From the NCBI RefSeq assembly GCF_037969875.1, contig NZ_CP150218.1:124001-188000 (forward strand): a stretch of 64,000 nucleotides of DNA, in the 5' to 3' direction. Both the position numbers and the translations under genes were made by a program. The DNA comes from Paenibacillus sp. FSL R7-0337 (lineage in GTDB: Bacteria > Bacillota > Bacilli > Paenibacillales > Paenibacillaceae). The notes below the pieces were generated by a model. The model made no database searches. It was not told the DNA's origin and was given only the letters and a program-made list of their open reading frames with translations. This document shows positions 2,356 through 18,182 of the stretch, in pieces; within the stretch, counting starts at the first letter, position 1, and each line of letters opens with the position of its first letter.

Positions 2356-4110
2356 TTATTTATTTATTTGTTTGTTCTCCAGGGGCAGACGCAGCAAAAT
2401 GCGGGTTCCCGCTCCGGGTTCGCTCGTGATGGAGAAGGTGAACGATTCCCCGTAGGTGATTCTCAGCCGGGTGATTACATTCTTCATCCCGATCGAATCC
2501 CCCATGGCGGACGCATCTTCCAGGTAATGCATAAGCTCACTGATTTTTGCCTGGTCCATGCCCACACCGTTATCTGCAATGACGAAGACAATCTGTCCGT
2601 TCTCCTGGGCGATCTGAATGTTGATATATCCGATGCCCGCTATATTCTCAATCCCGTGAATACTGGCGTTCTCAACATACGGAAGGAAGGCCATCTTCGG
2701 AATTTCAATGCTCAGCAGTGACTGGTCCACCTCGATGTGATATTCAAGCTTGTTGTCGAAGCGGTATTTCTGAATCTCCAGGAAGCTCTCGATTAATTCA
2801 AGCTCCTCGCGGATCGTAACGAAGCTGCTCTTCCACATGATTGATTTACGGAAAATCTTCGCCATGTTCTGAATCGTCCGGGCCGTCTGCGTCTCGCCCT
2901 TCATCATACTCCGCATCCGGATCGTCTCCAGCGCATTGAACAGGAAGTGAGGGTTGATCTGGCTGTGCAGCGCATGCAGCTGGGCCTGCCGTTGCCTCAG
3001 CTCAAGCTCCTTCTTCTGTATTTCTGCAACATATACATCATTAATCAAGTTCTCTATGCGTTTACTCATTCGGTTGAACTCAACGGTAAGCTCGCCAATC
3101 TCATCCCGCTCCAGGTGGTAGGGGATCAGTCCGAAGTTTTTGTCTTTTACAGACTTCATATGCTTCAAGATGTTCTTGATACGCGTGTGGATCGAACGGG
3201 ACATGATCATAATTACGATGGTAGGAACCAGGAAGTTAATGCCGGCGAACCAGAGGATAAATTGCCCGGATTGTCTGACGTCAGACAAAATAAGGGTCTC
3301 ATCCAGGACGCCGTAAATCGACCAGCCGCTTAGATAACGGTTATTCTGGTAGGTCTTGTCGATCACAATGGCCTGCTTAGGCTTGGGAATCTCAGTTGGG
3401 GTCAGGGTATGCGCCGCAGTAATCAGCCCGCTGGGCTGACCGCTGGAGAGACGGCCGAAGCGGGCCTGGCCCGACGGGTCGAGAATATAGAAATCACCGC
3501 TGAAGCTGGATAAATCCAGAATCTGCTGGATATGGTTCATGTTCAGGTCGATTTTGAGCACATGCTCGTAGGTCTCCAGCCTGCGGTCGGTAAGGCGCTG
3601 GATCACGCTGATGCTGTCGGGCGTTACATAGAGATGAGGGTGGGTGTTGCTGAACTTACTGATCTGCTTATACCAGTCCTGCTGGCGCATACTGTCCTCC
3701 AGCTTAATGATATGGGCTGAGGCCAGAACGGTTGGATTGTCGGTCATAATCACCGAGGAGCTCAGCACCTTGTTCTCTTTGTCGGTCCGGTTGAACAGAT
3801 TCGATATGGCGTTCAGCGACTCCACATAGCGGTCTGTTGAAGCATAGGTGGTATTCAGATGCTGGATCAGCTGCCGGTCAATAGAGTAGAGGTAGGATAT
3901 GCCTGCTGCATCTTCAATGACGGTCCTCAGCTCAGCCTGCAGCAGATTCATCGCCTGCTCGGCATCCGCGGTCTTCTGATTCTTGATATTGGCGGTGGTC
4001 ACCTGATAGAACATTACATTGGTCAGGATGATCGGAATGAACACGCATACAATGTAGATGACAATCAGCTTGCTTCTAAGCTTCATATGATTCAGACGGA
4101 AGTTGAACAC
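2356..4110 (-). CDS. YesM-family sensor histidine kinase
   Basis: Membrane sensor kinase of 584 residues. A first membrane span (about residues 15-37, LIVIYIVCVFIPIIL) is followed by a ~250-residue extracellular Cache-like sensor, a second span near residue 290 (FILWFAGINFLVPTIVIMIM), a HAMP linker, the YesM-type His-kinase domain with the phosphoacceptor in INPHFLFNALE, and a C-terminal ATPase domain with DNGVGMD. It should phosphorylate the response regulator encoded 18 bp upstream in the same operon. Partner and downstream sugar-transporter genes suggest it senses an extracellular carbohydrate or its loaded binding protein (inference). Confidence 0.95.
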   Translation of the reverse strand: MFNFRLNHMKLRSKLIVIYIVCVFIPIILTNVMFYQVTTANIKNQKTADAEQAMNLLQAELRTVIEDAAGISYLYSIDRQLIQHLNTTYASTDRYVESLNAISNLFNRTDKENKVLSSSVIMTDNPTVLASAHIIKLEDSMRQQDWYKQISKFSNTHPHLYVTPDSISVIQRLTDRRLETYEHVLKIDLNMNHIQQILDLSSFSGDFYILDPSGQARFGRLSSGQPSGLITAAHTLTPTEIPKPKQAIVIDKTYQNNRYLSGWSIYGVLDETLILSDVRQSGQFILWFAGINFLVPTIVIMIMSRSIHTRIKNILKHMKSVKDKNFGLIPYHLERDEIGELTVEFNRMSKRIENLINDVYVAEIQKKELELRQRQAQLHALHSQINPHFLFNALETIRMRSMMKGETQTARTIQNMAKIFRKSIMWKSSFVTIREELELIESFLEIQKYRFDNKLEYHIEVDQSLLSIEIPKMAFLPYVENASIHGIENIAGIGYINIQIAQENGQIVFVIADNGVGMDQAKISELMHYLEDASAMGDSIGMKNVITRLRITYGESFTFSITSEPGAGTRILLRLPLENKQINK

Positions 4111-4128
4111 GGCAGGGAGCCTCCTTAT

Positions 4129-5691
4129 TTACTGCCCAATCATCATATTGCGATAATCGGTTGGCGTCATATTCTCAAGCTTTTCAAACTGGGTGGCAAA
4201 ATAATCCGCATTCTGGAAGCCGACCAGCTCCGCGATTTCGTACATCCGCTTCTTGGTTTGCCGCAGCAGGCGTTTGGCCTCCTCAATCCGCAGGGTCAGC
4301 AGGTATTCATTGAAATACACTCCGTAGGTTTTGCGGAATAACTGTCCAAGATAGACAGGGTTCATATCGAAATCGGCGGCAATACCCTTGAGGTAGATAT
4401 TTTCACGGTAATGCCCGTCGATGTATTTTTTGATTTTTTCAATATTGCCCTCGCTCTTGCCGCCGCGCTTCTCTGCGATATATTCTGCGGCTTCGGCGAT
4501 AAACTGCTGGAATATCTGCTTCAGCTGATTCAGATTTCGGTACTTCAGCGGCCAGTTGAGCAGCTCATTCATCCATTGCAGCGTATTCTCGTCACCTTCG
4601 AGCTGCCGGATAATATTAATGATGGCAATCATGCTGCGCCGGATCGTGTTCGTCACCGCTCCGGGGGCGAAGTGGCGCTCTTGGAACAGGGTGAAGATAG
4701 CGTCCACAGTTGAGCTGTAACCCTTGTTGTCATTGGCTTCGACCTCGTAAATCAGCTTGCTGTGCAATCCTTCATCGATGTCGAAATAGTATAAGGGCAG
4801 CTCCAGCAGCTCGTCCGCCATATAAATGCCTTCGAAGCCTGCGGCAAAACGGTACTGGAGGCATTTCTCGGCACTGGTCCCGGAGTCTGCAATCTGCTTG
4901 AGATGGCTTACCGTCCGGCCAACGAACAAAGCGATGCTTGTTCCAAGCTCCCGCTCCAGTGCATCCAGCATTGTGCGGTAGCCTCCCCACGGGGATGGAT
5001 TAGGATCATCGACCCAATGGCCGGGCACGATCACCCCGTATTGATTGTTAGTGCGTACATGAAGGAGCAGAGTCTGAGCCTCTTGGCGGAAATATCGCAG
5101 CAGCGAGTCCTTCAGTGCAGGCAGGTAATCGACTTCTCCGGCGGGGAGCTGATCCTGCATTTCTACGATGAGATACGTATAGGAAGAGGTGAGAGGAAGC
5201 TCCAGCGCGTAGGCGATCCGCCCCATGACCTGATCATCAGGTTCTGTCTGCAGCAGGCTTTCGATGACCGTCTCAACCAGAGGCTTTTCACGGGTGATAG
5301 AGAGGAGCTGCTTCTTGTTCAACATATGGGCGATTTTGCCTAGCGCAACCGTAAGCTCCTGTTCGTCAACCGGCTTGAGGATATAATCGGACACATTGTA
5401 CCGGAAGGCTTGCTGGGCATAGGAGAAGTCGGCATATCCGCTCAAAATAATAAAAATCGGCTCCTGCACAAGCTCCGTCTTCACTTTCTTGATCAGTCCC
5501 AGCCCGTCCAGCACAGGCATACGGATATCGGCAATCACCAGCTCCGGGTTCAATTGTTCAATCAGGGTAAGCGCTTGCTCCCCGTTCTCGGCTTCACCGC
5601 AAATTTCGAATTGCGGCGAGCATTCACTCAGAATCCGGATCAAGCCCTTCCGCACAAAAACTTCATCATCTACAATCAGCACCTTATACAA
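4129..5691 (-). CDS. YesN-type response regulator with AraC DNA-binding domain
   Basis: Two-component response regulator, 520 residues. The N-terminal receiver shows the acidic pair in VLIVDDE, the phosphoacceptor Asp in ADIRMP and the switch Lys in YILKPVDE. A ~270-residue middle region, typical of YesN proteins, links to a C-terminal AraC double helix-turn-helix (about 410-515, YLGQLFRKTYG..FNEYL and IAELVGFQNADYFATQF). First gene of the minus-strand operon; the kinase follows after 18 bp. It probably activates the solute-binding/permease genes further downstream. Length and domain order match the family. Confidence 0.95.
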   Translation of the reverse strand: MYKVLIVDDEVFVRKGLIRILSECSPQFEICGEAENGEQALTLIEQLNPELVIADIRMPVLDGLGLIKKVKTELVQEPIFIILSGYADFSYAQQAFRYNVSDYILKPVDEQELTVALGKIAHMLNKKQLLSITREKPLVETVIESLLQTEPDDQVMGRIAYALELPLTSSYTYLIVEMQDQLPAGEVDYLPALKDSLLRYFRQEAQTLLLHVRTNNQYGVIVPGHWVDDPNPSPWGGYRTMLDALERELGTSIALFVGRTVSHLKQIADSGTSAEKCLQYRFAAGFEGIYMADELLELPLYYFDIDEGLHSKLIYEVEANDNKGYSSTVDAIFTLFQERHFAPGAVTNTIRRSMIAIINIIRQLEGDENTLQWMNELLNWPLKYRNLNQLKQIFQQFIAEAAEYIAEKRGGKSEGNIEKIKKYIDGHYRENIYLKGIAADFDMNPVYLGQLFRKTYGVYFNEYLLTLRIEEAKRLLRQTKKRMYEIAELVGFQNADYFATQFEKLENMTPTDYRNMMIGQ

Positions 5692-5842
5692 TGGACTTCC
5701 TCCTTGGGGTTATTCTGGATTGCTTGGTCCTGTTCCATCCTCGGTCAAGCCGCAGTGTGATCATTATAAGCTAATTCCCTGACAGAATTCGAGTGGAAAC
5801 GACTTTTTATTCTAGCACCTGCTGGAATATCCTCTCCAAACG

Positions 5843-5872
5843 AAGAGCCTGCATCGTTAGACACAGGCTCTT
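5843..5872 (+). terminator. Terminator-like hairpin
   Basis: AAGAGCCTG (5843-5851) pairs perfectly with CAGGCTCTT (5864-5872) around a 12-nt loop; a T-rich stretch with TTTTTT follows after about 13 bases. No gene on the plus strand ends upstream, so it could be a relic or belong to an unseen short RNA. Confidence 0.4.
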
Positions 5873-6088
5873 TGGTATTGTATTTTTTATGCTAAACGCT
5901 TAGCTTATTTGTCATTGTGCCGGAGATGCGGGGGGCAGCATGTTCCGTGTGGAGCTGCGGAGTTATAACGACTGAGACGTATGCTGAACCCGTATCGTCC
6001 TGGCATTATGTATCCTGCCGCATATGGGAGCATCCATCCGAATGTTTACGAACCTTGTCTGCTGAGTTAGCCTCTTCTGCGCTCAGCA

Positions 6089-6140
6089 CGGCTCACCCAG
6101 TGTGAGCCCGGATGCTCCGCATTGGGTGAGCCGGGTCTTT
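6089..6140 (+). terminator. Terminator-like hairpin before the small charged protein
   Basis: CGGCTCACCCA (6089-6099) pairs with TGGGTGAGCCG (6123-6133), an 11-bp perfect stem, followed by GGTCTTTCCC. The T-run is short. It may end a short transcript or act as a leader structure of the gene that starts about 60-100 bp downstream. Confidence 0.4.
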
Positions 6141-6194
6141 CCCGTATAATAATAGACGTTACGCCGGAAGTTACATTTGAGCGTACCCCGGCGT

Positions 6195-6491
6195 ATGAAC
6201 TCTAAGCATCAGGAAGGGAATGAAGAAACGTTGACTTATACGAAACTGTTAGAACGAAAAGGCGAAATTCTCAAGCGAACCGTGGAAACCTGGATCATGA
6301 AAGAGAATCGTGACGGGCTGGACCGTCAGGAAGCCCATATCTACAGGAATATGGTCAAGGAGCTTCATCAGAATGAGCAGGAACTGAATGTGGCACGTGT
6401 GGAGGAACTTGATAAGAGCCTGGATTCGGACACAGAAGGAGCAGCTTCAACAGCTTCAGCCCAGAGAGAGCTTGTAGCACAGGGTGTGTGA
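6195..6491 (+). CDS. Small charged hypothetical protein
   Basis: About 98 residues, hydrophilic, helical and Glu/Lys-rich (KLLERKGEILKRTVETW, MVKELHQNEQELNVARVEEL), without signal peptide or Cys; it looks like a short coiled coil. I do not recognise a family. The frame is open from a TTG at 6177; ATG 6195 is chosen here. An alternative TTG at 6231 (TYTKLLERK) has AGGAAGG 13 bp before it and could be the true start. A strong terminator follows at 6541-6579, which supports a real transcription unit. Confidence 0.6.
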   Translation: MNSKHQEGNEETLTYTKLLERKGEILKRTVETWIMKENRDGLDRQEAHIYRNMVKELHQNEQELNVARVEELDKSLDSDTEGAASTASAQRELVAQGV

Positions 6492-6540
6492 AACCGATAG
6501 CCTATGAAGCTGTATTAACATTAATAATGGAATCTAATAA

Positions 6541-6579
6541 GCCGCCCGGCTTCGCAGATGCGAAGGAAGGGCGGCTTTT
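6541..6579 (+). terminator. Rho-independent terminator
   Basis: GCCGCCC (6541-6547) pairs with GGGCGGC (6569-6575), with an inner CTTCGC/GCGAAG stem, followed by TTTT. It ends the small gene upstream and may also serve the convergent gene ending at 6597. Confidence 0.8.
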
Positions 6580-6596
6580 GACCATGTTTAGATAAG

Positions 6597-7496
6597 CTAC
6601 AGTCTTACAATCCGCCGGTACACCAGGCAATCCAGCAGATCCTCCCATTCCAGCTCGCTCTCATAAGGATCGCGGAAAGCGGTCGCAGTTGGAAGATACC
6701 CTAGAGCAACGCCTTGCCCGCCGTGCAGATTGCAGCCGCCGTCGCCGCCTTTGCCGGTGATGCCTTCCGGTGTGAGGACCAGCTCCTTCTTGTAAGGATC
6801 ACCGGGAAAACATAGCCCGAACGCATTCGGCAGCTCCAGCGGATACGGGTCTTCAGCATTAGCCTTACTTGAACCGGGCACATGCCTGAGCTGCATGGAT
6901 TCGTCTATCTCGTCGCCCCACGGGAACAGCGTCCGGGTGCCTGCGCCGTACAGATACTCCCATTCATCCTCAGTCGGCAAGGTGAAGCCCTCCGGCAGCT
7001 CCGACTCGCACCATTCTTCGAACGATTCGCTGTCGTCGAACAGGAACACTACGATCTGTTCCCCGTCCCGCTCCAGCCGGAAAGACTGCGAGTACTCATA
7101 GCTGGTGTGCGGCCCCTGACGGAACTCCTCGATGGCTTCGAGCACATCTTCATCCTCTTCCGGGTCGAGCCGGACCAGCGGACATTCATACCAGCCTGCG
7201 GATTGCGGCGAGCGCTGAACAAGCAACGGCCCGATTACAGCTTCACGGAGGGGGGACATCTTCGCATACATATGTACTTCTGAACGGCCCAGGGTCACCG
7301 AGTCGCCCGGCACGAACACATATTCACTGCCCTCGTACATGAATACCCCTGTTTCCAGAGACTGGCCGTAACGTTCGAACCTATCGAGCCGCAGCCACTT
7401 GAAGCCAGCGGGTAACTGCTTAAGTACTTCCTGCATCGCGTGCATTTTCTCATCAACCGTTAATTGCCCCCATGCGGCACGGTTCCATGCTTCCAT
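6597..7496 (-). CDS. FGE/SUMF1-like hypothetical protein
   Basis: Soluble 299-residue protein, no signal peptide. The C-terminal half contains LPTEDEWEYLYGAGT and LFPWGDE, which match the hallmark stretch of the formylglycine-generating-enzyme (SUMF1/FGE-sulfatase) fold, and a Gly-rich GGDGGCNLHGGQG region where those proteins have their core turn. The N-terminal half (KMHAMQEVLKQLPAGFKWLRLDRFERYG) is unfamiliar. The usual FGE catalytic Cys pair is not evident, so a binding or structural role is as likely as enzymatic oxidation of Cys. The start is backed by GGAGGAGAAGATGAC before the ATG. It stands alone on its strand. Confidence 0.75.
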   Translation of the reverse strand: MEAWNRAAWGQLTVDEKMHAMQEVLKQLPAGFKWLRLDRFERYGQSLETGVFMYEGSEYVFVPGDSVTLGRSEVHMYAKMSPLREAVIGPLLVQRSPQSAGWYECPLVRLDPEEDEDVLEAIEEFRQGPHTSYEYSQSFRLERDGEQIVVFLFDDSESFEEWCESELPEGFTLPTEDEWEYLYGAGTRTLFPWGDEIDESMQLRHVPGSSKANAEDPYPLELPNAFGLCFPGDPYKKELVLTPEGITGKGGDGGCNLHGGQGVALGYLPTATAFRDPYESELEWEDLLDCLVYRRIVRL

Positions 7497-7701
7497 GTCA
7501 TCTTCTCCTCCCGGGAATTGGCACTTTCAGCCTGTCTACTGTCATTGTAATGGACAGCCCGGGTTACTGGCAAACCCGCCGGGAATGCTGCCGGACACAC
7601 CTGTTAAATAGCATCCATTTATAACCTGTCCTTATTGTCTGCGTGGTCATATAATAATTCAGGTTGGAACATTAATACATAGTAAAAGAGGGATAGGAGT
7701 T

Positions 7702-8973
7702 ATGAATTCAAAACGATTGAAATTCTTCGCGGCAGGTTTTGCATTATTACTGGCTGCACAGGTACTGCTTCCCGGGCGCTCATCGGCTGCGGGGAAAGTC
7801 ATTGAACAGCTCCCCAAGCCGGAATGGAGCTATACGCTGCCGGATGGCATTAGCTTCTGGGGCACTATAGACACCTTACAGAGTAAGAATCGGATGTTCA
7901 TTCCGCTAGTCAAGACCGTAACCGTAGCCCCTTCCAAGACGAAGTCTTCGGGCATGTTGTACGCATCCATTGACCGCATTAACGGTTCTGCCAACTGGGT
8001 ATATGACTATTCGGACATGGCCAACGACAAGCCGTTTACTGCCAATCGTTTCTTTACGGCCAGTAACGGCTACAGCTATTTCTATAAAATGTGGGGCGGC
8101 AAACCCTATGATCTTACCGTTGTTGATTCGAACGGCAAACGGAAATGGACCAAAACCATAACCGGGTCCTACTCGCCGGTGGTGCTGGATAACGGAAATA
8201 TAGTGATTCAAGCCTTGGTTAGCGGCAATGTAGCTTCTCGTGGTATTACCGAGTACAGTCAGGACGGGAAGCAGGTACGCAAGCTTAAGCTGACCGGCAA
8301 ATGGGCCTCAGGGGTGATTGATGTGCTGCCGAACGGCTATGTGGTACATAAGGAGCTGGATACAAACAGAGTCAGTGTATACCGGAGTCTGGATACTCTG
8401 ACGAAACCACTGGTTACCTACACCGCTCCCAAAGCAGTTAAATATCCTGATTTCCAGGTGTATCCGCTTCGCGGCGGGTCGTTCCTGATTAAGATGAGTA
8501 GTAGCGATACCTGGCTGTTATTCGGCTATGACGCTAACGGCACCAAGAAGTGGGTGCGTCCTGTGAACAAGATGGATCGGATTGATACGACAGGCAACAA
8601 CTTTCTGATCCAGAGCGACAACGTCTATAAATTGTACAGCAAAGACAACCAATTACTCGGCAAGCAGCAGATCGGTGAAGCCGGGGACCGCGAATGGTAC
8701 TGCCGGATAACACCATCGGGCGAGATTACGGTCGAGAAGCAGTACCAATGGCAGGAGCGTCCGGCTGTCGTTGATCCTGAGACCTTCGAGGGGGATATTG
8801 CCAAGGAGGATTTCTATGTGCTGGACCCGGCGAACCTGCAGATCAAATATCATCTCTCCACGTTATGGCACGACTATGAAACCGGGCATAATTACATTTA
8901 TGCTGGAGGCGGGGAGCTGTACATTACGAGGAGTTACGCGCCTAAGACGATTACCAAATATATGTTGAAGTAG
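7702..8973 (+). CDS. Secreted beta-propeller-like hypothetical protein
   Basis: 423 residues with a Sec signal peptide (KRLKFFAAGFALLLAAQVLL, likely cleaved near SSAAG). The mature part is rich in short beta-strand repeats with aromatic and Gly/Asn turns (NGYSYFYKMWGG, DNGNIVIQALV, PNGYVVHKELD), consistent with a PQQ/WD-like propeller. A role in the cell envelope or outside the cell is inferred; no catalytic motif was seen. GAGGGATAGGAG precedes the ATG. A long bidirectional hairpin closes the gene. Monocistronic. Confidence 0.75.
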   Translation: MNSKRLKFFAAGFALLLAAQVLLPGRSSAAGKVIEQLPKPEWSYTLPDGISFWGTIDTLQSKNRMFIPLVKTVTVAPSKTKSSGMLYASIDRINGSANWVYDYSDMANDKPFTANRFFTASNGYSYFYKMWGGKPYDLTVVDSNGKRKWTKTITGSYSPVVLDNGNIVIQALVSGNVASRGITEYSQDGKQVRKLKLTGKWASGVIDVLPNGYVVHKELDTNRVSVYRSLDTLTKPLVTYTAPKAVKYPDFQVYPLRGGSFLIKMSSSDTWLLFGYDANGTKKWVRPVNKMDRIDTTGNNFLIQSDNVYKLYSKDNQLLGKQQIGEAGDREWYCRITPSGEITVEKQYQWQERPAVVDPETFEGDIAKEDFYVLDPANLQIKYHLSTLWHDYETGHNYIYAGGGELYITRSYAPKTITKYMLK

Positions 8974-11651: not shown

Positions 11652-11681
11652 AAAGATCAACGGTAATTACCATTGATCTTT
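11652..11681 (-). terminator. Terminator overlapping the end of the FhuF-like gene
   Basis: AAAGATCAA (11652-11660) pairs with TTGATCTTT (11673-11681), with an inner GGT/ACC pair, and on the minus strand is followed by TTTTTTCTATTT. The TAA stop of the gene (11667-11669) lies inside the hairpin. Confidence 0.8.
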
Positions 11682-12461
11682 CCATGAGACAGGTAGCTGG
11701 GAATTCCCATCTGTAGAGATTATAGGACATCCGCCGCAATAGTCATGATCCGCTCTGAGCTTATAGGCCAGACAGCAGGTAGCTTTCACAGATATCGTAT
11801 CGTGCGGAGGGTGTGGGTCCGTCCTGAACTTGGGGGTGATACGGAACGGATTGCTGCGAAGTCCGAATACCTCCGGCTTCAACTCCCAGATTACAGCTTG
11901 GAATTGCCCGTGGATCAGGTTGCGATGGCACTCACTGGGAGCATCAAGAGCATCCTCTTCGATAAAAGTATACAACTGATTATAGACATGCTTCCACAGC
12001 ATTACCGCTTTGGTCTGTGAAGCCTCAGCAAGTGCCGCAATAATCGGTCTGACCTCGTTCGTGTAGAACCACCCAAGTTCATCTATGATCTCATTTCCAT
12101 TCCCGTTCCGGTCATAGATACCCTCCCGGTAGTTATGGATAGGGAAGGCAAATTCGGGATACCCCTCTGTGCGGATGAGCTGCACAGACAGGTTATTCAG
12201 TCGCAAGGCATGAGCCAGCGGGTCTGCAGCTGTGAGCAGTACGTATTTAGCTCCGCAGATCCCGGCGATCCATGTGCAGAAGATGGCTGCCGCTATCCGT
12301 TTATCCTCAGTCCCGAGCATGGAAGCATAAGTGGTAAGCAGATGCTCAGCATGTGCGGGCATACATAATTCGGTCAGTCGTAAAGTAACCACTGCGTTCT
12401 CGATAGCTTCGGGGCAGATGTAGTAACGTTCAGCCCGCTGGAGCTCGCCAGTGTTGCCCAT
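11667..12461 (-). CDS. FhuF-like [2Fe-2S] ferric-siderophore reductase family protein
   Basis: 264 residues, cytoplasmic. The C-terminus has CCLAYKL followed by YCGGCP, the C-C-x10-C-x2-C pattern that binds the [2Fe-2S] cluster in FhuF proteins, which reduce ferric siderophores to release iron. The upstream body (HAEHLLTTYASMLG, LLTAADPLAHAL) fits the family. The start chosen is ATG 12461 (MGNTGELQ), preceded by GGGGGACTTCAA; a longer frame reaches 12521 but would overlap the gene before it. It lies 13 bp after a siderophore-binding protein gene, so the two form an operon for iron uptake and release. Confidence 0.85.
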   Translation of the reverse strand: MGNTGELQRAERYYICPEAIENAVVTLRLTELCMPAHAEHLLTTYASMLGTEDKRIAAAIFCTWIAGICGAKYVLLTAADPLAHALRLNNLSVQLIRTEGYPEFAFPIHNYREGIYDRNGNGNEIIDELGWFYTNEVRPIIAALAEASQTKAVMLWKHVYNQLYTFIEEDALDAPSECHRNLIHGQFQAVIWELKPEVFGLRSNPFRITPKFRTDPHPPHDTISVKATCCLAYKLRADHDYCGGCPIISTDGNSQLPVSWKDQW

Positions 12462-12474
12462 TTGAAGTCCCCCT

Positions 12475-13437
12475 TTATTTGGAGTTGCCTTCAAAGGCTT
12501 GAAGCACTGCATCCACCGCATAACGGTTAGCCATAGGAGACATCCCCAGATTGAACCAATCCTTGCCGGCCATGGTGTAGACCTGGTTCTTTTTGACCGC
12601 CGTCATGTTCTTCCATAATGGACTCTTCAGCAGATCCTCATAGGTGTTCTTAACCCCGGCATCGTCCTCGTTATTCAACTGGAGGAAAATGTGATCGGGA
12701 TTATACTCAGGCAGCTTCTCAAGCGAGATGGATAAGGAAGGGTCCTTAGTTGGGAAATTCGGGATCATCTCCAGCCCAAGCGTAGTATGAAGGAATTTTC
12801 CGCGGTCAATCTGATCTCCGTAAAGAACGAAGCTGCCCGGCATCACCATCATGTACATCACCGTTTCATTACCCACCAGATCATCCAGCTTCTGCTTGGC
12901 TTCCGCCTCCTGAGTCTCCAGATCCTTGATTACCTTCTCTGCAAGCTCCGTTTTGCCGAGTACCCCGGCGATATCCTTCAGCTCATCCCGCCAGTCATCC
13001 CGCTGCGGCAGCAGAACCGTCGGAGCGATCCCGGACAACTGGTCATAATCCTTAGCCGACCACCACGTAGGGGCGAGGATCAGATCAGGATTGGCAGAGA
13101 GAATCATTTCGAAATTCGGGGTTTGGGCTATGCCCATCTTCAGCGTATCCTTGAACGGCTCCTCTAGATAAGTCGGGAACTCCTCCTGGTAGTTCTGTAC
13201 AGCAACGGGCGTAACCCCCAGGGCCTGCAGGAATTCCGGGTAGACCACAGACAAGCCAATCACTCTGGCCGGGTGGGCGGGGATTTTAATCTCGCCTTTC
13301 TCACTGCCTACTACCCGGAAATCTGCTTCGGCGTCTGCGGCCACCTTGGCCTGTCCACTGTTATTAGAGCAAGCTGTCATTACCAATATCAATGCTATCG
13401 CCATGCAGAACACCATTCTTTGTCTCATCTGTCGCAT
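12475..13437 (-). CDS. Iron-siderophore ABC transporter substrate-binding lipoprotein
   Basis: 320 residues with a lipoprotein signal (MAIALILVMTAC, Cys 23) and the two-lobed FepB/FhuD-type fold: NTD with IPAHPARVIGLSVVYPEFLQALGV, the NPDLILAPTWW motif and a long interlobe helix (VIKDLETQEAEAKQKLDDL). It should bind ferric siderophore outside the membrane and hand it to a FecCD-type permease, which is not in this window. AGGAGG precedes the ATG. A Fur-like box lies 50-62 bp upstream. It is followed by the FhuF-like reductase gene and preceded by a Btr-type regulator, a common iron-uptake arrangement. Confidence 0.93.
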   Translation of the reverse strand: MRQMRQRMVFCMAIALILVMTACSNNSGQAKVAADAEADFRVVGSEKGEIKIPAHPARVIGLSVVYPEFLQALGVTPVAVQNYQEEFPTYLEEPFKDTLKMGIAQTPNFEMILSANPDLILAPTWWSAKDYDQLSGIAPTVLLPQRDDWRDELKDIAGVLGKTELAEKVIKDLETQEAEAKQKLDDLVGNETVMYMMVMPGSFVLYGDQIDRGKFLHTTLGLEMIPNFPTKDPSLSISLEKLPEYNPDHIFLQLNNEDDAGVKNTYEDLLKSPLWKNMTAVKKNQVYTMAGKDWFNLGMSPMANRYAVDAVLQAFEGNSK

Positions 13438-13486
13438 ATCTTCAATAACCTCCTGAGTATCAATACCTGTCTTCTCACCTGAGAGT

Positions 13487-13499
13487 GAGAATCAATATC
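13487..13499 (-). promoter_or_regulatory. Imperfect Fur box
   Basis: On the minus strand GATATTGATTCTC matches 11 of 13 positions of GATAATGATTATC, about 50 bp before the siderophore-binding gene. Fur would repress the gene when iron is sufficient. Confidence 0.5.
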
Positions 13500-13557
13500 A
13501 CTGTTAGGAGTATAAAACAATCCGTCCGATTCGACTATTGACTATCACGCCAATATT

Positions 13558-15213
13558 TCATATCCGATTACGCCAGAGTGTCAGCACGGAGTCAAGAGCC
13601 AGCTCTTGGGTGAACGAGTTATACTCTGTCCAAGGGTAGGGAGGGAGGTGTCCAATACGTGATAACCCTGCGGGATCAGGGGGCAGCAAGGACTCTCTGT
13701 CCCGGAGTGCAGACCAGACGGCCTGAGAAGCAGCATCCTGATCCACAATGAACAGCAGCTTGTCCGCATCTGACGACCATAGCTCCTCAGGGGTTATGGT
13801 CTGATTACTTAGCTCACGGTCCACAACGGACGCCGGGATAAAATGCAGATCATCATAGAACACCTCAGCTAAGCTTCGGGTAGACAGCACGGTGATGGAT
13901 TGAGCGGATATGCGGACAAGGAGCAGCTTGCCCATAGCGGGTCCTTGGCCCAATTTTACCCGGATGCTCTTGGCCTTACGCTCATAGTTATTCAGCCATG
14001 CTGCTGCTTCCGGCGCCCTGCCTACGCATTCTCCAATGAAGTGTAATTGCGAGCGCCAATCCGTCTGGAGGGGAGACACGAGGAACGTGGGAGCAATTGC
14101 CTGGAGCTGCGGGAGCATCCACCGTCTTACCGAAGTCTCCAGCCCGAGAATGTAATCAGGACGGAGAACGCTAAGCTGCGCTAGCCGGAGAGACTCCTGC
14201 TTGGCAAGCGGCAGCGCCGCATCCGTCTCATATTTTCGCCGGTAATATTCAGCCCAGGGATGGTCCGCAGGAGCTGCGCAGGGAATAATATTCAGGGTAA
14301 GCAGCGACCCGATGAGGCTGCCGTGACAAACTGCGATTTTGAGCTTGGCATTGCGCATGAAGGTGGCCGGCGCGACCCCGGTAATCTGCTTGAATTTGCG
14401 CCGGAAGTAAGGGACATCCTTGTAACCCACATAAGCCGCAATATCCTTCAGCTCATAATTCGTCTGCGGCAGCATCAGGCTCCGTGCTTGTCTGATCCGG
14501 TATTCGGTCAGGTACTCGATCGCGCTGAGACCATAGGTCTGCTTGAACAGCCGGATGAAATGCCTGACGCTGGTGCCTGCTTCAGCAGCAAGCAGACCGA
14601 TGGACAGCTCTTCACGGTAATGCTGCTCTATATAGAGCTTAGCCCGCTCCATGGCAGTGTCGGTATCGCTTGGCTGCATCTGTCCGGCACTGCTCAGCAG
14701 ACTGTGCAGCAGCTCATAGAACCGGCTCTGGGCAAGCAGACGCTGCAAGGGGTTCTGGCTTCCCATGTAACCGGTGATGGACTCACAAAGTTTGCTGTAT
14801 GTAATCGTTGACTGAATGGCTATGTTTCCTTCCAGGGGGACGGGGAGATGAAGCTCAGCCGGGCGGGTAGGTTGCTGTTCTTCCGGTATACTATGCTGGC
14901 TATACACATCGAACCGTAGGATGTATACACTTTGTTCGCCTGTGTTCTCCATTGAGGCCTCGATTAATTGCCCCGGCTGACAGACGAACGCACTTCCCGC
15001 CCTCAGCTCGCAGTATTTGCCGTCCACCGTGATGGAGCCTTGCCCCGCAATGGGAATCAGCAGCAGATACGATTTCAGAAATTGCAGCCGCAGCGGCCAC
15101 TCTCCCCCTGGATTACGGCCATGCATAATACTCCGAAGCCTGAACCACATCTGATCTAGCTCTCCAAAGGCTTTCGAAGGCGGGAGGCTATCCTTATCGT
15201 TCATTTGTTGCAC
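13558..15213 (-). CDS. Btr-type AraC regulator with C-terminal siderophore-binding domain
   Basis: 551 residues, cytoplasmic. N-terminal cupin-like sensor (about 40-115), AraC double helix-turn-helix (about 190-290, VRHFIRLFKQTYGLSAIEYL and IAAYVGYKDVPYFRRKFKQ), then a periplasmic-binding-protein-like domain without signal peptide (about 300-551, LRPDYILGLETSVRRWMLPQL). The same architecture occurs in B. subtilis Btr, which senses bacillibactin and activates its uptake genes. Here it probably activates the adjacent siderophore-binding gene, 120 bp downstream. Its promoter lies in the divergent region containing a Fur box at 15305-15319. Confidence 0.9.
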   Translation of the reverse strand: MQQMNDKDSLPPSKAFGELDQMWFRLRSIMHGRNPGGEWPLRLQFLKSYLLLIPIAGQGSITVDGKYCELRAGSAFVCQPGQLIEASMENTGEQSVYILRFDVYSQHSIPEEQQPTRPAELHLPVPLEGNIAIQSTITYSKLCESITGYMGSQNPLQRLLAQSRFYELLHSLLSSAGQMQPSDTDTAMERAKLYIEQHYREELSIGLLAAEAGTSVRHFIRLFKQTYGLSAIEYLTEYRIRQARSLMLPQTNYELKDIAAYVGYKDVPYFRRKFKQITGVAPATFMRNAKLKIAVCHGSLIGSLLTLNIIPCAAPADHPWAEYYRRKYETDAALPLAKQESLRLAQLSVLRPDYILGLETSVRRWMLPQLQAIAPTFLVSPLQTDWRSQLHFIGECVGRAPEAAAWLNNYERKAKSIRVKLGQGPAMGKLLLVRISAQSITVLSTRSLAEVFYDDLHFIPASVVDRELSNQTITPEELWSSDADKLLFIVDQDAASQAVWSALRDRESLLPPDPAGLSRIGHLPPYPWTEYNSFTQELALDSVLTLWRNRI

Positions 15214-15297: not shown

Positions 15298-15327
15298 TTG
15301 TAACTGATAATGGTTATCAATTATAAT
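15298..15327 (+). promoter_or_regulatory. Sigma-A promoter with Fur box in its spacer
   Basis: TTGTAA (15298-15303) and TATAAT (15322-15327) are 18 bp apart. Between them TGATAATGGTTATCA (15305-15319) differs at one position from the Fur consensus. Fur bound here would block polymerase, so the rightward AraC-lipoprotein-methyltransferase unit should be induced by iron limitation. The box may also serve the leftward regulator. Confidence 0.85.
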
Positions 15328-15369: not shown

Positions 15370-17247
15370 GTGAGACTTGGACAGGAAGACAGCATTCGGG
15401 CATGGAACCATGTACCAATTAGAATTATAGATATCCGTCATATGAGCATGAGGCCGGGAGAGCAGGAGCGGTACGTTTTTCCGTCAAGTGTGTTTGTATT
15501 CACTAATCAGGGGGAGGCTGTCTTCCTGCTCGACGGGACCGGAGGTACTGCAGGACAATCACAGGTTATGCATGGCGGCAAAGGCGCCATTCTTCAAGTC
15601 GCCAGTCTGGGTCAACCGTTAGATTATTACCTCATTCTATACAAACCTTGGTCAGGCAGTGCCTTCACAGAAGCGCGCGGGGACGAGCCGGGTTCTTTTC
15701 AGCAGAGATACGCCTTCCCCGGGAGTGACCCATGGGTGATTCTGTCCCTGCTGGAGCGTATGCATCAGCTATGGAGGAGCGGAGGGGAGCTGGAACGAGT
15801 GCAGGTGCTGGGACTGTTCTACCAGTTTGTAGCCGAGCAATTCCGTCAGCTTGAGCTGGCGGGCGAGCAGGAGCCGGAGACAGATCTGGCAGAGCAGATC
15901 GCCCGTTATATCGGGGAATTCTATCATAAGCCTCTGTCCATGAGCGCTATGGCTAGGTTGTTTCATTACAGCACGCATCACTTAGTGAGGGTATTCAAGC
16001 GCAAATATCAGTGCAGTCCGATGGAGTACGTGAGCCGTACGCGGATGCAGCACGCCAAAAGCCTGCTGGCCAGGACGGATGCACCGATCCGCGATGTGGC
16101 TGAACGTGTGGGGTATACGGATTTTTATTATTTTAGCAGACTGTTCAAAAAGGTATATGGAGAGACCCCCGCACAGTTCAAAATGCACGCTCCGCTTCTG
16201 GAAGGTTCAAATCCTACCAAAGAAATGCCGGAATCGTTCATTGCTCGCCGGAGGGAAGCACGTTATATTGATATCGATGATAATCATTATCAATACAGAA
16301 GACGGAGTGTGAATGATTTGAAAGCTAGCCTTAAGCCCATGTTTGTGATGTCCCTCTTGATCAGCTTGTCTGTGATGGTTGCTGGCTGCGGAGGCGGAAA
16401 TACGAAGACTGCTGATGACAAAACCACCAAGTTGTTCACCGACGGCTTCGGCAGAGAGGTGGAGATTCCGGCAGAGCCAAGTCAGGTTGTTGCCCTCACT
16501 TACGGCGGGTATATGCTTCCGCTTGGCCTGAAGCCGGCAGGTGTTAACCAGGAGACACTGGAACAATATAAGGAAGAGATGGCGGATGTGGAGAATGTCG
16601 GCTCAGAAACAGGCAACGTGGAAGCCATCTCCGCATTGATGCCTGATCTGATTATTATCCCGGATTATTTGGGCCAAGATGTCATTGAGACCTATGAGAA
16701 GATTGCTCCGACCGTAGCAGTAGCCTGGGGCGGTGACCCGGATGTGGTGAACACCTTACGGACCATGGGCGAGATTATGGGCAAGCAGGAGGAGGCAGAG
16801 AAATGGATTGCATCGTTCGATAAGAAGCTGCAAGGTATCCGGGACAGCATCAACGTGAAGCTTGATGAAGGCACGACTGCCATCTCCTTCATTATTCATA
16901 ACGGGGAGGTGCTGCTTGGAGGCGAGGGTGGCACCCTGGGCAAGCTGATCTATCAGGATTTCGGCTTCACCATGCCGGAGCAATTCAAGGCGTATGCTGA
17001 CGGGGGAACGGCGCTGTCGATGGAGAGACTGGTGGACAAGCCGGCGGATTACTTTTTCACACAGATGACGGATGAAGAGCTGGACGCGATGTATGAGCTG
17101 TTCAAGGAGCCGGTCTACCAGAGCATCCCAGCGGTGAAGAACAACCGGATTATCAATGTCTCGCGCGCCAACTGGAACAACGGGCCTTACACGGTGGACC
17201 GGGGAGTGGATGCACTGATTGAGCAGGTGTCGAAGCTGCAGGAGTAG
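15370..17247 (+). CDS. AraC regulator continuous in frame with a siderophore-binding lipoprotein
   Basis: One unbroken 625-codon frame from GTG 15370 (AGGGGGAAG upstream). Residues 1-150 form a cupin-like sensor; about 170-275 are an AraC double helix-turn-helix (LVRVFKRKYQCSPMEYV, VAERVGYTDFYYFSRLFKK). Residues 276-313 are a low-conservation linker whose DNA carries a perfect Fur palindrome (16278-16292). From residue 314 there is a full lipoprotein signal (MFVMSLLISLSVMVAGC, Cys 340) and an iron-siderophore binding protein (FGREVEIPAEPSQVVAL, ALMPDLIIIPDY). A DNA-binding domain ahead of an export signal is odd: either two proteins are made, or a stop codon was lost. Related Btr proteins fuse the domains without a signal peptide. 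Confidence 0.8.
   Translation: MRLGQEDSIRAWNHVPIRIIDIRHMSMRPGEQERYVFPSSVFVFTNQGEAVFLLDGTGGTAGQSQVMHGGKGAILQVASLGQPLDYYLILYKPWSGSAFTEARGDEPGSFQQRYAFPGSDPWVILSLLERMHQLWRSGGELERVQVLGLFYQFVAEQFRQLELAGEQEPETDLAEQIARYIGEFYHKPLSMSAMARLFHYSTHHLVRVFKRKYQCSPMEYVSRTRMQHAKSLLARTDAPIRDVAERVGYTDFYYFSRLFKKVYGETPAQFKMHAPLLEGSNPTKEMPESFIARRREARYIDIDDNHYQYRRRSVNDLKASLKPMFVMSLLISLSVMVAGCGGGNTKTADDKTTKLFTDGFGREVEIPAEPSQVVALTYGGYMLPLGLKPAGVNQETLEQYKEEMADVENVGSETGNVEAISALMPDLIIIPDYLGQDVIETYEKIAPTVAVAWGGDPDVVNTLRTMGEIMGKQEEAEKWIASFDKKLQGIRDSINVKLDEGTTAISFIIHNGEVLLGGEGGTLGKLIYQDFGFTMPEQFKAYADGGTALSMERLVDKPADYFFTQMTDEELDAMYELFKEPVYQSIPAVKNNRIINVSRANWNNGPYTVDRGVDALIEQVSKLQE
16241..16292 (+). promoter_or_regulatory. 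Internal Fur-controlled promoter candidate
   Basis: TTGCTC (16241-16246) and TATATT (16264-16269) are 17 bp apart, followed at about +3 by the exact palindrome TGATAATCATTATCA (16278-16292), a perfect 15-bp Fur box. It lies inside the long open frame and 17 bp before GTG 16309, the natural start of the lipoprotein. Promoter strength is inferred. Confidence 0.65.
16309..17247 (+). CDS. Possible separate siderophore-binding lipoprotein from an internal start
   Basis: If translation starts at GTG 16309 the product is 312 residues and begins MNDLKASLKPMFVMSLL, an ordinary lipoprotein signal with Cys at residue 27, length typical of siderophore-binding proteins. A modest AGACGGA stands directly before the GTG. 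The internal Fur box and promoter just upstream support independent expression. This entry is nested in the 625-codon frame and is an alternative or additional product, not a second locus. It is followed after 5 bp by the methyltransferase-like gene. Confidence 0.55.
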   Translation: MNDLKASLKPMFVMSLLISLSVMVAGCGGGNTKTADDKTTKLFTDGFGREVEIPAEPSQVVALTYGGYMLPLGLKPAGVNQETLEQYKEEMADVENVGSETGNVEAISALMPDLIIIPDYLGQDVIETYEKIAPTVAVAWGGDPDVVNTLRTMGEIMGKQEEAEKWIASFDKKLQGIRDSINVKLDEGTTAISFIIHNGEVLLGGEGGTLGKLIYQDFGFTMPEQFKAYADGGTALSMERLVDKPADYFFTQMTDEELDAMYELFKEPVYQSIPAVKNNRIINVSRANWNNGPYTVDRGVDALIEQVSKLQE

Positions 17248-17252
17248 GAAGG

Positions 17253-18182
17253 GTGAATCTCGATATGAATCCATTTAATAGAAAAGTCAATGTTCCTTAC
17301 GTCAAATTCCGTAAAGCCAACATCCTCCGAAACGACTCTACCCAGCATGACTGGCAGCACTGGGGCGGCTACCGGAATCAGATCCGGCAAGTTTTGGAGC
17401 AAACTCTGGAGCATAACCGCTGCGGGCACGGGCATATTTTATTACTCGGAGCAGGGAACGGAAACGATGTGCCCATCTCGTACATCGAGTCTATATTTGA
17501 ACGGATCACAATCGTCGATATTGATGAAAAAGCGTTGGACCGCTTTCTGGCCAAGTCGGCGCACCCGGAAAAATACGAACGAGCAATCATTGATCTGACC
17601 GGCGTAGGAAGAGAAGTGTCTTCTCCGGATGACTTGAAAGAAAAGGTCGACGATTTGCTGCCAAAGGTGGACTTCTCGCCGCTGCACCCTCCTTTTGACG
17701 TGGTCATGAATTTATGCTTCACAACGCAGCTCATCTCCGCCTTTTTTTACAGGAAGAAAAATAGGGTTGTCCATACGCCAGAATACAGCGCTCAGCTGGA
17801 TCAGTTGCTTGAACGGATTCATATCAACATCTTTGAATCATTGCGGGGCCTCTTGGCATCGGACGGGGTGATTGTTCATTTAACCGATACTCTGCTGCTG
17901 CAGCACATGAAAACAACCGGCTATACCAGCCCGGCTACTTTTAAGACTCTGGAGCTGACGGGAGGGAATATCCGGGATAACTTGGACTTGATTTATGAGC
18001 ATCTGCCGGAGCTGGCTAAACAAGGCTTATGCCTGCCGGGAGCATTTGTCCACGTTCATCCGCAAATTATGCAGTTGTATAAAGTTGAATTAAGGTTTTC
18101 GTTGCTGTGGGAGTTCGTCCATGACGAATATGAAGACAGGGATTACTTTGTGAGCGCGCATGTGCTGACCAAACTGTCGTAG
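17253..18182 (+). CDS. SAM-dependent methyltransferase-like protein in the iron operon
   Basis: 309 residues, cytoplasmic. The Gly-rich ILLLGAGNGNDVP loop and the acidic VDIDEKAL that ends strand 2 match a class I SAM-binding Rossmann fold; later parts (FDVVMNLCFTTQLISAFF, GVIVHLTDTLLL) fit the same fold. Substrate unknown. The gene begins 5 bp after the lipoprotein stop (GTG 17253; ATG 17265 with AGGAAGG upstream is also possible), so it is co-transcribed with Fur-controlled genes. A role in siderophore or metallophore metabolism is inference; nicotianamine-synthase-like enzymes share this fold but I see no firm match. Confidence 0.75.
   Translation: MNLDMNPFNRKVNVPYVKFRKANILRNDSTQHDWQHWGGYRNQIRQVLEQTLEHNRCGHGHILLLGAGNGNDVPISYIESIFERITIVDIDEKALDRFLAKSAHPEKYERAIIDLTGVGREVSSPDDLKEKVDDLLPKVDFSPLHPPFDVVMNLCFTTQLISAFFYRKKNRVVHTPEYSAQLDQLLERIHINIFESLRGLLASDGVIVHLTDTLLLQHMKTTGYTSPATFKTLELTGGNIRDNLDLIYEHLPELAKQGLCLPGAFVHVHPQIMQLYKVELRFSLLWEFVHDEYEDRDYFVSAHVLTKLS

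What the first reader, a model, noticed from the sequence alone, without database searches (positions are those of the whole stretch)
15370..17247. AraC regulator and siderophore-binding lipoprotein in one frame with a perfect Fur box at the joint
A single 625-codon frame encodes an AraC DNA-binding protein, then a full lipoprotein signal and binding protein. The linker DNA contains the exact palindrome TGATAATCATTATCA (16278-16292) behind a promoter-like TTGCTC-17-TATATT, and GTG 16309 gives a normal lipoprotein. A second Fur box controls the start of the whole frame. Either one gene makes two products, or a stop codon has been lost and a regulator is now tethered to the membrane. A cytoplasmic regulator fused ahead of an export signal is very unusual.
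Basis: partly seen in the sequence, partly recalled or inferred. Interest (0 to 1): 0.75.

Follow-up and report, generated by a model that had tools for sequence, protein, structure and literature searches.

The report
Iron-controlled promoter hidden inside fused gene
One unbroken bacterial gene joins a DNA-binding regulator to a siderophore-receptor domain, and the joint between them contains promoter-like, Fur-box-like and start signals that likely let the same gene also make the receptor alone; this layout is conserved in over a hundred related genes.

Summary
Window 15370-17247 (+) is one 625-codon frame: AraC regulator, linker, hydrophobic segment with lipobox VAGC, FhuD-like siderophore-binding domain. 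The linker DNA contains TTGCTC-17-TATATT and a perfect Fur box. It is not a recent lost stop: 112 of 159 distinct AraC entries examined have the same fused form; all 112 keep a Fur box (11/14 or better) in the linker in one codon phase, and 111 a lipobox. In 61 genus genomes an AraC-only profile found 84 strong matches, none in a frame under 400 aa. Fused relatives without the export signal mostly lack the Fur box (27 of 30) and the transporter-docking glutamates, and usually adjoin a separate lipoprotein gene (18 of 22, against 1 of 57). Best reading: a two-product gene. The upstream promoter would make a regulator predicted to sit in the membrane with the receptor outside; the internal Fur promoter would make the free uptake lipoprotein. 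Transcripts, products, Fur binding and topology are untested. The conserved internal start is TTG 16318, not GTG 16309. My literature searches listed no description of it.

The parts
15298..15327 (+). upstream promoter-like site TTGTAA-18-TATAAT (P1) with a Fur box between its hexamers
   Evidence: read directly
15305..15319 (+). upstream Fur box TGATAATGGTTATCA (13/14), lying between this gene and the divergent Btr-like gene
   Evidence: an upstream box of at least 11/14 in 86 of 112 relatives
15370..16188 (+). AraC regulator half, residues 1-273 (beta-rich N-domain, helices, double HTH); GTG start
   Evidence: Pfam HTH_18/HTH_AraC; AlphaFold2 model
16189..16338 (+). probably disordered linker, residues 274-323, whose codons overlap the internal promoter
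   Evidence: pLDDT about 30 over most of it; pre-promoter part pN/pS 0.63 in relatives
16241..16269 (+). internal promoter-like site TTGCTC-17-TATATT (P2), inside the frame
   Evidence: TTGNNN-17-TATANT ahead of the Fur box in 90 of 112 relatives, 0.1% of shuffles
16278..16292 (+). internal Fur box TGATAATCATTATCA, 14/14, read as D-N-H-Y-Q
   Evidence: at least 11/14 in 112 of 112 relatives, always the same codon phase
16304..16309 (+). Shine-Dalgarno-like GGAGTG for the internal start
   Evidence: sequence; SD plus in-frame start in 107 of 112 relatives, but also in 15% of shuffles
16318..16320 (+). predicted internal start codon TTG of the free lipoprotein
   Evidence: the codon 25 nt after the Fur box is ATG/GTG/TTG in 88 of 112
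16339..16389 (+). hydrophobic helix (residues 324-339) and lipobox VAGC ending in Cys340
   Evidence: helix modelled at low confidence, pLDDT about 50-56; Cys340 invariant in 58 aligned proteins
16426..17247 (+). siderophore-binding domain of FhuD type with docking glutamates Glu418 and Glu552, to the stop codon

Best explanation
This is likely a two-product gene: its single open frame encodes an AraC regulator joined through a hydrophobic lipoprotein-type segment to a siderophore-binding-type domain, and the in-frame linker carries a promoter-like site, a Fur-box match and a start codon that likely produce the receptor alone as a free lipoprotein. When iron is scarce, Fur would leave both boxes. 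The upstream promoter would then make the full-length protein, predicted to cross the membrane once with the DNA-binding half inside and the receptor outside, so that ferric siderophore outside would be sensed by the regulator (inferred). The internal promoter would make the free lipoprotein that delivers siderophore to shared FecCD permeases (inferred). Shown by sequence: the open frame and its conservation, the Fur box in one codon phase, the lipobox, the docking glutamates, and the joint loss of these in most signal-less relatives. Not shown: transcripts, protein products, Fur binding, membrane topology, ligand and target genes.
For: (1) 112 of 112 fused relatives with a hydrophobic linker segment have a Fur box of at least 11/14 in the linker, against 161 of 5600 shuffled linkers. 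(2) The distance from the HTH end to the Fur box takes 12 values (41-113 nt), all 2 mod 3 in 112 of 112, although this stretch lies upstream of the internal start; in a first set of 76 linkers the ORF frame has no stop, while the other two frames have stops in 58 and 76 of 76. Translation through the joint thus appears to be selected. (3) Linker codons ahead of the promoter show pN/pS 0.63 (bootstrap 0.44-0.89) in 19 independent pairs. (4) TTGNNN-17-TATANT upstream of the box in 90 of 112, 0.1% of shuffles. (5) Both docking glutamates in 111 of 112 fused genes with signal and 52 of 52 stand-alone receptors, but Glu at these places in 7 and 11 of 30 signal-less fusions. (6) A separate receptor gene adjoins 1 of 57 fused genes with signal but 18 of 22 without; in the window's own genome 0 of 5 against 6 of 6 on the same strand. 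(7) On a tree rooted with AraC genes that have no receptor in frame, signal-less forms arise in four places inside the signal-bearing family. (8) An AraC-only profile gives 84 matches of 200 bits or more in 61 genus genomes, none in a frame under 400 aa.
Against: No transcript or protein data. 17 of 112 lack even the relaxed promoter pattern, 24 of 112 have no start codon at exactly +25, 26 of 112 lack an upstream box of at least 11/14. SD-plus-start also occurs in 15% of shuffles. The window's own internal start is a weak TTG. In the class sample one strong match (326 bits) lies in a 370-aa frame with a stop inside the AraC part, and others in frames of 430 and 549 aa (list cut short). Signal-less fusions exist, so a joined regulator-receptor can evidently persist without the membrane segment; tethering of this gene is not proven, and the segment is modelled at low confidence. 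A lipobox could be cut by the lipoprotein peptidase, separating the halves. Three signal-less genes (L092, L162, L074) still carry a 12/14 box, and L079, L084 and L092 still have both glutamates. The tree is a quick one with 43 of 142 inner branches weak, and two of the four joins have support 76 and 23.
Confidence: 0.62

Rival explanations
1. The full-length protein stays in the cytoplasm as a Btr-like sensor; the hydrophobic segment is only a passenger required by the free lipoprotein.
For: Fused relatives without the segment exist and arise in four places on the tree; B. subtilis Btr is described as having a FeuA-like sensory domain (PMC9609785, one passage).
Against: From general knowledge, a hydrophobic helix following positive residues would normally be taken to the membrane during translation; all 112 genes of this class keep it by definition of the class.
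Confidence: 0.2
2. A polyprotein: the fusion is inserted, lipidated and cut at Cys340, so one message yields a membrane-stub regulator and the lipoprotein.
For: Lipobox in 111 of 112 fused genes.
Against: The lipobox is explained by the free product alone; the internal promoter would then be largely redundant.
Confidence: 0.12
3. Two ordinary neighbouring genes whose stop codon was lost without consequence; only the internal promoter product of the second half matters.
For: AraC gene / receptor gene pairs with a stop between them exist, 8 of 14 listed with a Fur box of at least 11/14 between HTH and receptor.
Against: Phase kept in 112 of 112 and no stops in 76 of 76, linker pN/pS below 1, no frame under 400 aa among 84 genus matches.
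Confidence: 0.04
4. A sequencing error or local stop loss in this genome.
For: None found.
Against: 80 of the 92 proteins listed, at up to 98% identity, carry the same hydrophobic segment and lipobox behind the AraC half.
Confidence: 0.01

Closest known systems
Btr (YbbB) of Bacillus subtilis, activator of feuABC
   Same: AraC DNA-binding domain joined to a siderophore-receptor-like domain; iron uptake context
   Different: Btr-like proteins seen here have a short linker without hydrophobic segment, lipobox or Fur box; in the studied gene the receptor half keeps export signal, docking glutamates and a Fur promoter. The window's neighbour 13558-15213 (-) is Btr-like (223.5 bits, below NCBIfam's cut-off of 900).
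ToxR/CadC-type membrane-integrated one-component regulators
   Different: AraC-type DNA-binding domain, sensor is a siderophore receptor, the same frame likely also makes the receptor alone; Gram-positive hosts
FhuD/FhuD2-type siderophore-binding lipoproteins
   Same: sequence (3hxp 6.7e-74 with profile A1), fold (FhuD2 4b8y first), lipobox, docking glutamates
   Different: translated as the second half of a regulator, and probably also from a promoter inside that regulator's frame
Transcription-factor binding in coding regions at internal promoters (PMC9600179; title and start of abstract seen in the listing)
   Same: regulated promoter within a coding sequence
   Different: here promoter and operator are built into a conserved linker between two domains, in several genera

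Membership tests
Btr-type regulator | passes the NCBIfam Btr model (NF049932, cut-off 900 bits) | tested here: not met
   91.7 bits, two stretches, the best at residues 128-270
Btr-type regulator | AraC domain plus receptor-like domain in one protein | tested here: met
Btr-type regulator | receptor domain soluble, no export signal | tested here: not met
   hydrophobic stretch and lipobox
ToxR/CadC-like one-component system | N-terminal DNA-binding domain, single membrane segment, C-terminal outside sensor | tested here: inconclusive
   domain order agrees and a helix is modelled at low confidence; topology only predicted
ToxR/CadC-like one-component system | OmpR-like winged-helix DNA-binding domain (recalled) | tested here: not met
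   AraC-type HTH
class III siderophore-binding lipoprotein | Peripla_BP_2 domain and lipobox cysteine | tested here: met
class III siderophore-binding lipoprotein | two permease-docking glutamates | tested here: met
   Glu418 and Glu552; 111 of 112 each in the family
class III siderophore-binding lipoprotein | signal peptide at the N-terminus of a made protein | not testable with these tools
   needs 5'-end mapping or proteomics; conserved internal start seen
Fur-regulated promoter | 7-1-7 box TGATAATNATTATCA (consensus recalled) at a promoter | tested here: met
   14/14 at 16278, 8 nt after the -10 hexamer
Fur-regulated promoter | Fur binding and iron response | not testable with these tools
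   needs an experiment

The most novel reading that the evidence does not exclude
A Gram-positive surface-signalling gene in which the uptake receptor itself is the outside sensor of a membrane-spanning AraC regulator, with the receptor's Fur-controlled promoter written into the protein linker, so that one frame makes both the signalling and the transport form; this state is ancestral to some soluble AraC-receptor sensors that lost promoter, signal and docking.
Probability: 0.45. Interest if true: 0.88.

Novelty: new variant of a known kind. Interest (0 to 1): 0.78.

Why it matters
To my knowledge (recalled) Gram-positive bacteria are not known to sense siderophores outside the cell with a one-protein regulator. 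If true, this family gives a direct route from receptor to promoter and suggests how Paenibacillus, which one survey reports to have the highest ratio of such receptors to siderophore gene clusters (29.43; PMC13293324, passages seen), could tune many receptors. It also shows a promoter and operator preserved as protein-coding linker over great sequence distance, and offers a testable path from separate genes to a fused sensor. Annotation that calls one gene here would miss the second product.

Tried and rejected
Lost stop or sequencing error: rejected. Start GTG 16309: rejected in favour of TTG 16318. Chance Fur box: rejected. A conserved peptide rather than conserved DNA: in the box D is GAT 56 of 56, N AAT 69 of 73, H CAT 60 of 66, Y TAT 73 of 74, Q CAA 49 of 52, against 69, 65, 76, 69 and 46% elsewhere in the same frames, so the DNA is constrained; E goes the other way (GAG 26 of 32), as some boxes read TGAGAAT. 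A permease beside the gene: none; the genome has 8 FecCD matches, 5 strong (250-327 bits) in three places and 3 weak (27-30 bits), for 21 receptor domains, so permeases are presumably shared. The downstream gene 17253-18182 was not found in the relatives' loci at E 1e-20 (many of those loci hold only 1.5 kb of flank) and is not treated as part of the unit.

Literature: all ten searches (some aimed at Btr or at docking residues) gave listings in which I saw no description of this architecture; the library lacks most subscription papers. The 2007 Btr paper is known here only through citing passages.

Limits and rows dropped: loci were picked by similarity to a fused query (80 best of 553), so the class shares are not prevalences. 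Dropped: identical linkers (2); identical AraC DNA and entries whose AraC match was incomplete, such as L012 with an in-frame stop; 55 fused and 8 signal-less genes with short flanks; 14 AraC entries under 140 bits, not in the tree. Class labels depend on cut-offs that I set (hydropathy, linker length at least 60). Fur, promoter and SD consensus sequences are recalled.

Full report
The frame and its parts. Window 15370-17247 (+) is an uninterrupted 625-codon frame. Pfam finds AraC helix-turn-helix domains (194-271) and Peripla_BP_2 (393-595). The AlphaFold2 model (58 sequences, mean pLDDT 79.7, pTM 0.45) shows a beta-rich N-domain, two long helices and the double HTH to residue 273, a linker mostly at pLDDT about 30 (277-325 under 50), a helix at 324-339 at low confidence (about 50-56), and the binding-protein fold at 353-624. 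The receptor half is closest to FhuD-type ferric-hydroxamate binders (3hxp 6.7e-74 with profile A1; FhuD2 4b8y first by structure).

The joint. The linker DNA reads TTGCTC (16241-16246), 17 nt, TATATT (16264-16269), TGATAATCATTATCA (16278-16292), GGAGTG (16304-16309), TTG (16318-16320), then a hydrophobic stretch and VAGC with Cys340 (16387-16389). A second box, TGATAATGGTTATCA, is at 15305-15319 inside TTGTAA-18-TATAAT.

Not an accident. A protein search listed 92 proteins; 80 of them have a hydrophobic stretch with lipobox behind the AraC half, at 23-98% identity in an alignment of 57 of them, from Paenibacillus, Cohnella and Brevibacillus among named sources. In 61 genomes of the genus, 84 matches of 200 bits or more lie in frames of 459-718 aa, 80 of them at least 600 and none under 400; stand-alone frames (280-358 aa) appear only at 165 bits or less. 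Three of the 84 carry a stop inside the AraC match. In 299 genomes of the class, 42 had a match, in 12 of 118 genera, again mostly in long frames; exceptions at 200 bits or more include frames of 370 (with a stop inside AraC), 430 and 549 aa, and the list was cut short.

The linker is a promoter and a peptide at once. From 168 fetched loci plus the window I took 159 distinct AraC entries: 112 fused with a hydrophobic linker segment, 30 fused without, 17 with no receptor in frame. All 112 have a Fur box of at least 11/14 in the linker (shuffles 161 of 5600); 111 have a lipobox (the exception is L016); TTGNNN-17-TATANT precedes the box in 90 (shuffles 0.1%), a relaxed form in 95 (0.9%); SD plus in-frame start in 107 (shuffles 15%). 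An upstream box of at least 11/14 is found in 86 (no shuffle control was run for that). The linker box is always in the same codon phase although the distance from the HTH end takes 12 values, all 2 mod 3. In a first set of 76 linkers there is no stop in frame, but stops in 58 and 76 of 76 in the other frames. In 19 independent close pairs pN/pS is 0.20 in AraC, 0.63 (0.44-0.89) in the linker ahead of the promoter and 0.31 over promoter and box. The stretch ahead of the internal start is read only in the full-length product, so its frame preservation argues that the full-length protein is used. Of the near-invariant linker residues, the codon of Ile291 overlaps the -35 hexamer and that of Tyr307 lies in the Fur box.

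What happens when the signal is lost. The 30 signal-less fusions retain a Fur box in 3 (L092, L162, L074) against 112 of 112 (Fisher 4.8e-26). The two glutamates that dock such receptors on their permease (PiaA Glu119/Glu262, with mutant evidence for FecB, FhuD2 and FeuA: PMC3741162, abstract and passages) are present in 111 of 112 each in fused genes with signal, in 52 of 52 each in stand-alone receptors, and in 7 and 11 of 30 signal-less fusions. L079, L084 and L092 still have both. A separate receptor gene lies within 1.5 kb on the same strand of 1 of 57 signal-bearing and 18 of 22 signal-less fusions (p 4.7e-13; 63 with short flanks set aside; relatedness not corrected). In the window's own genome five fused genes, this one included, have the linker Fur box (13 or 14 of 14), hydrophobic segment and lipobox, and none has another receptor gene on its strand nearby (for this gene one lies about 2 kb away on the opposite strand); six signal-less fusions, with at most 8/14, each adjoin a stand-alone receptor gene on the same strand. 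So where the fused receptor is no longer exported, another gene appears to supply the transport part, which implies that in genes like this one the receptor half serves both roles.

Origin. A quick tree of 145 AraC domains puts the 14 entries without receptor in frame in one group (support 100) and needs 5 changes for the three states. Rooted there by me, the signal-bearing fusions come first and signal-less ones arise in four places; support at these joins is 100, 98, 76 and 23, and the first of them is next to L016, which already lacks a lipobox. In 14 AraC/receptor gene pairs the AraC frame ends 3-11 residues after the HTH, and a box of 11/14 or more lies before the receptor domain in 8, with mixed phases. 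The likely path is separate genes with a Fur promoter between them, then fusion with the promoter kept in frame, then repeated loss of promoter and signal. The Btr-like family proper (AraC under 140 bits here, including the neighbour 13558-15213) was not placed.

How it would work. Both boxes would be released at low iron. The long product is predicted to be a single-pass membrane regulator with the receptor outside; the short product the transport lipoprotein. Membrane-integrated forms are about 3% of one-component systems (PMC5936718, passages), and Btr is described as having a FeuA-like sensory domain and activating feuABC-ybbA (PMC9609785 and PMC6529636, passages). Membrane topology, cleavage, ligand and targets remain inference.

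Noticed in passing
window 11667-15213 (-): FhuF-like protein, a siderophore-binding lipoprotein with a Fur-like box ahead of it (13486-13500, 2 mismatches) and a Btr-like AraC-receptor regulator, divergent from the studied gene and sharing its 156-bp upstream region and Fur box.
   Followed up: partly
window 17253-18182 (+): 309-aa protein starting 5 bases after the fused gene, no Pfam or NCBIfam match; the sequence looks like a methyltransferase (recalled motif).
   Followed up: partly
L012 1392-3471 (coordinates on its - strand): Fused relative with an in-frame stop inside the AraC domain while the Fur-box peptide, lipobox and receptor half follow intact: possibly a natural loss of the regulator with the receptor kept, or a sequencing error.
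   Followed up: no
L099 5820-13802 (+): Four tandem AraC-gene/receptor-gene pairs in one Firmicutes metagenome contig.
   Followed up: no
L040 5970-9955; L057 3934-7917; L053, L054 and L056 about 3770-7977 (+): Two fused AraC-receptor genes in tandem, each with its own internal Fur box.
   Followed up: no
L016, L017, L018: Fused genes with a shortened linker, no lipobox and a decaying Fur box (11, 9, 8 of 14): apparent intermediates in losing the internal promoter.
   Followed up: partly
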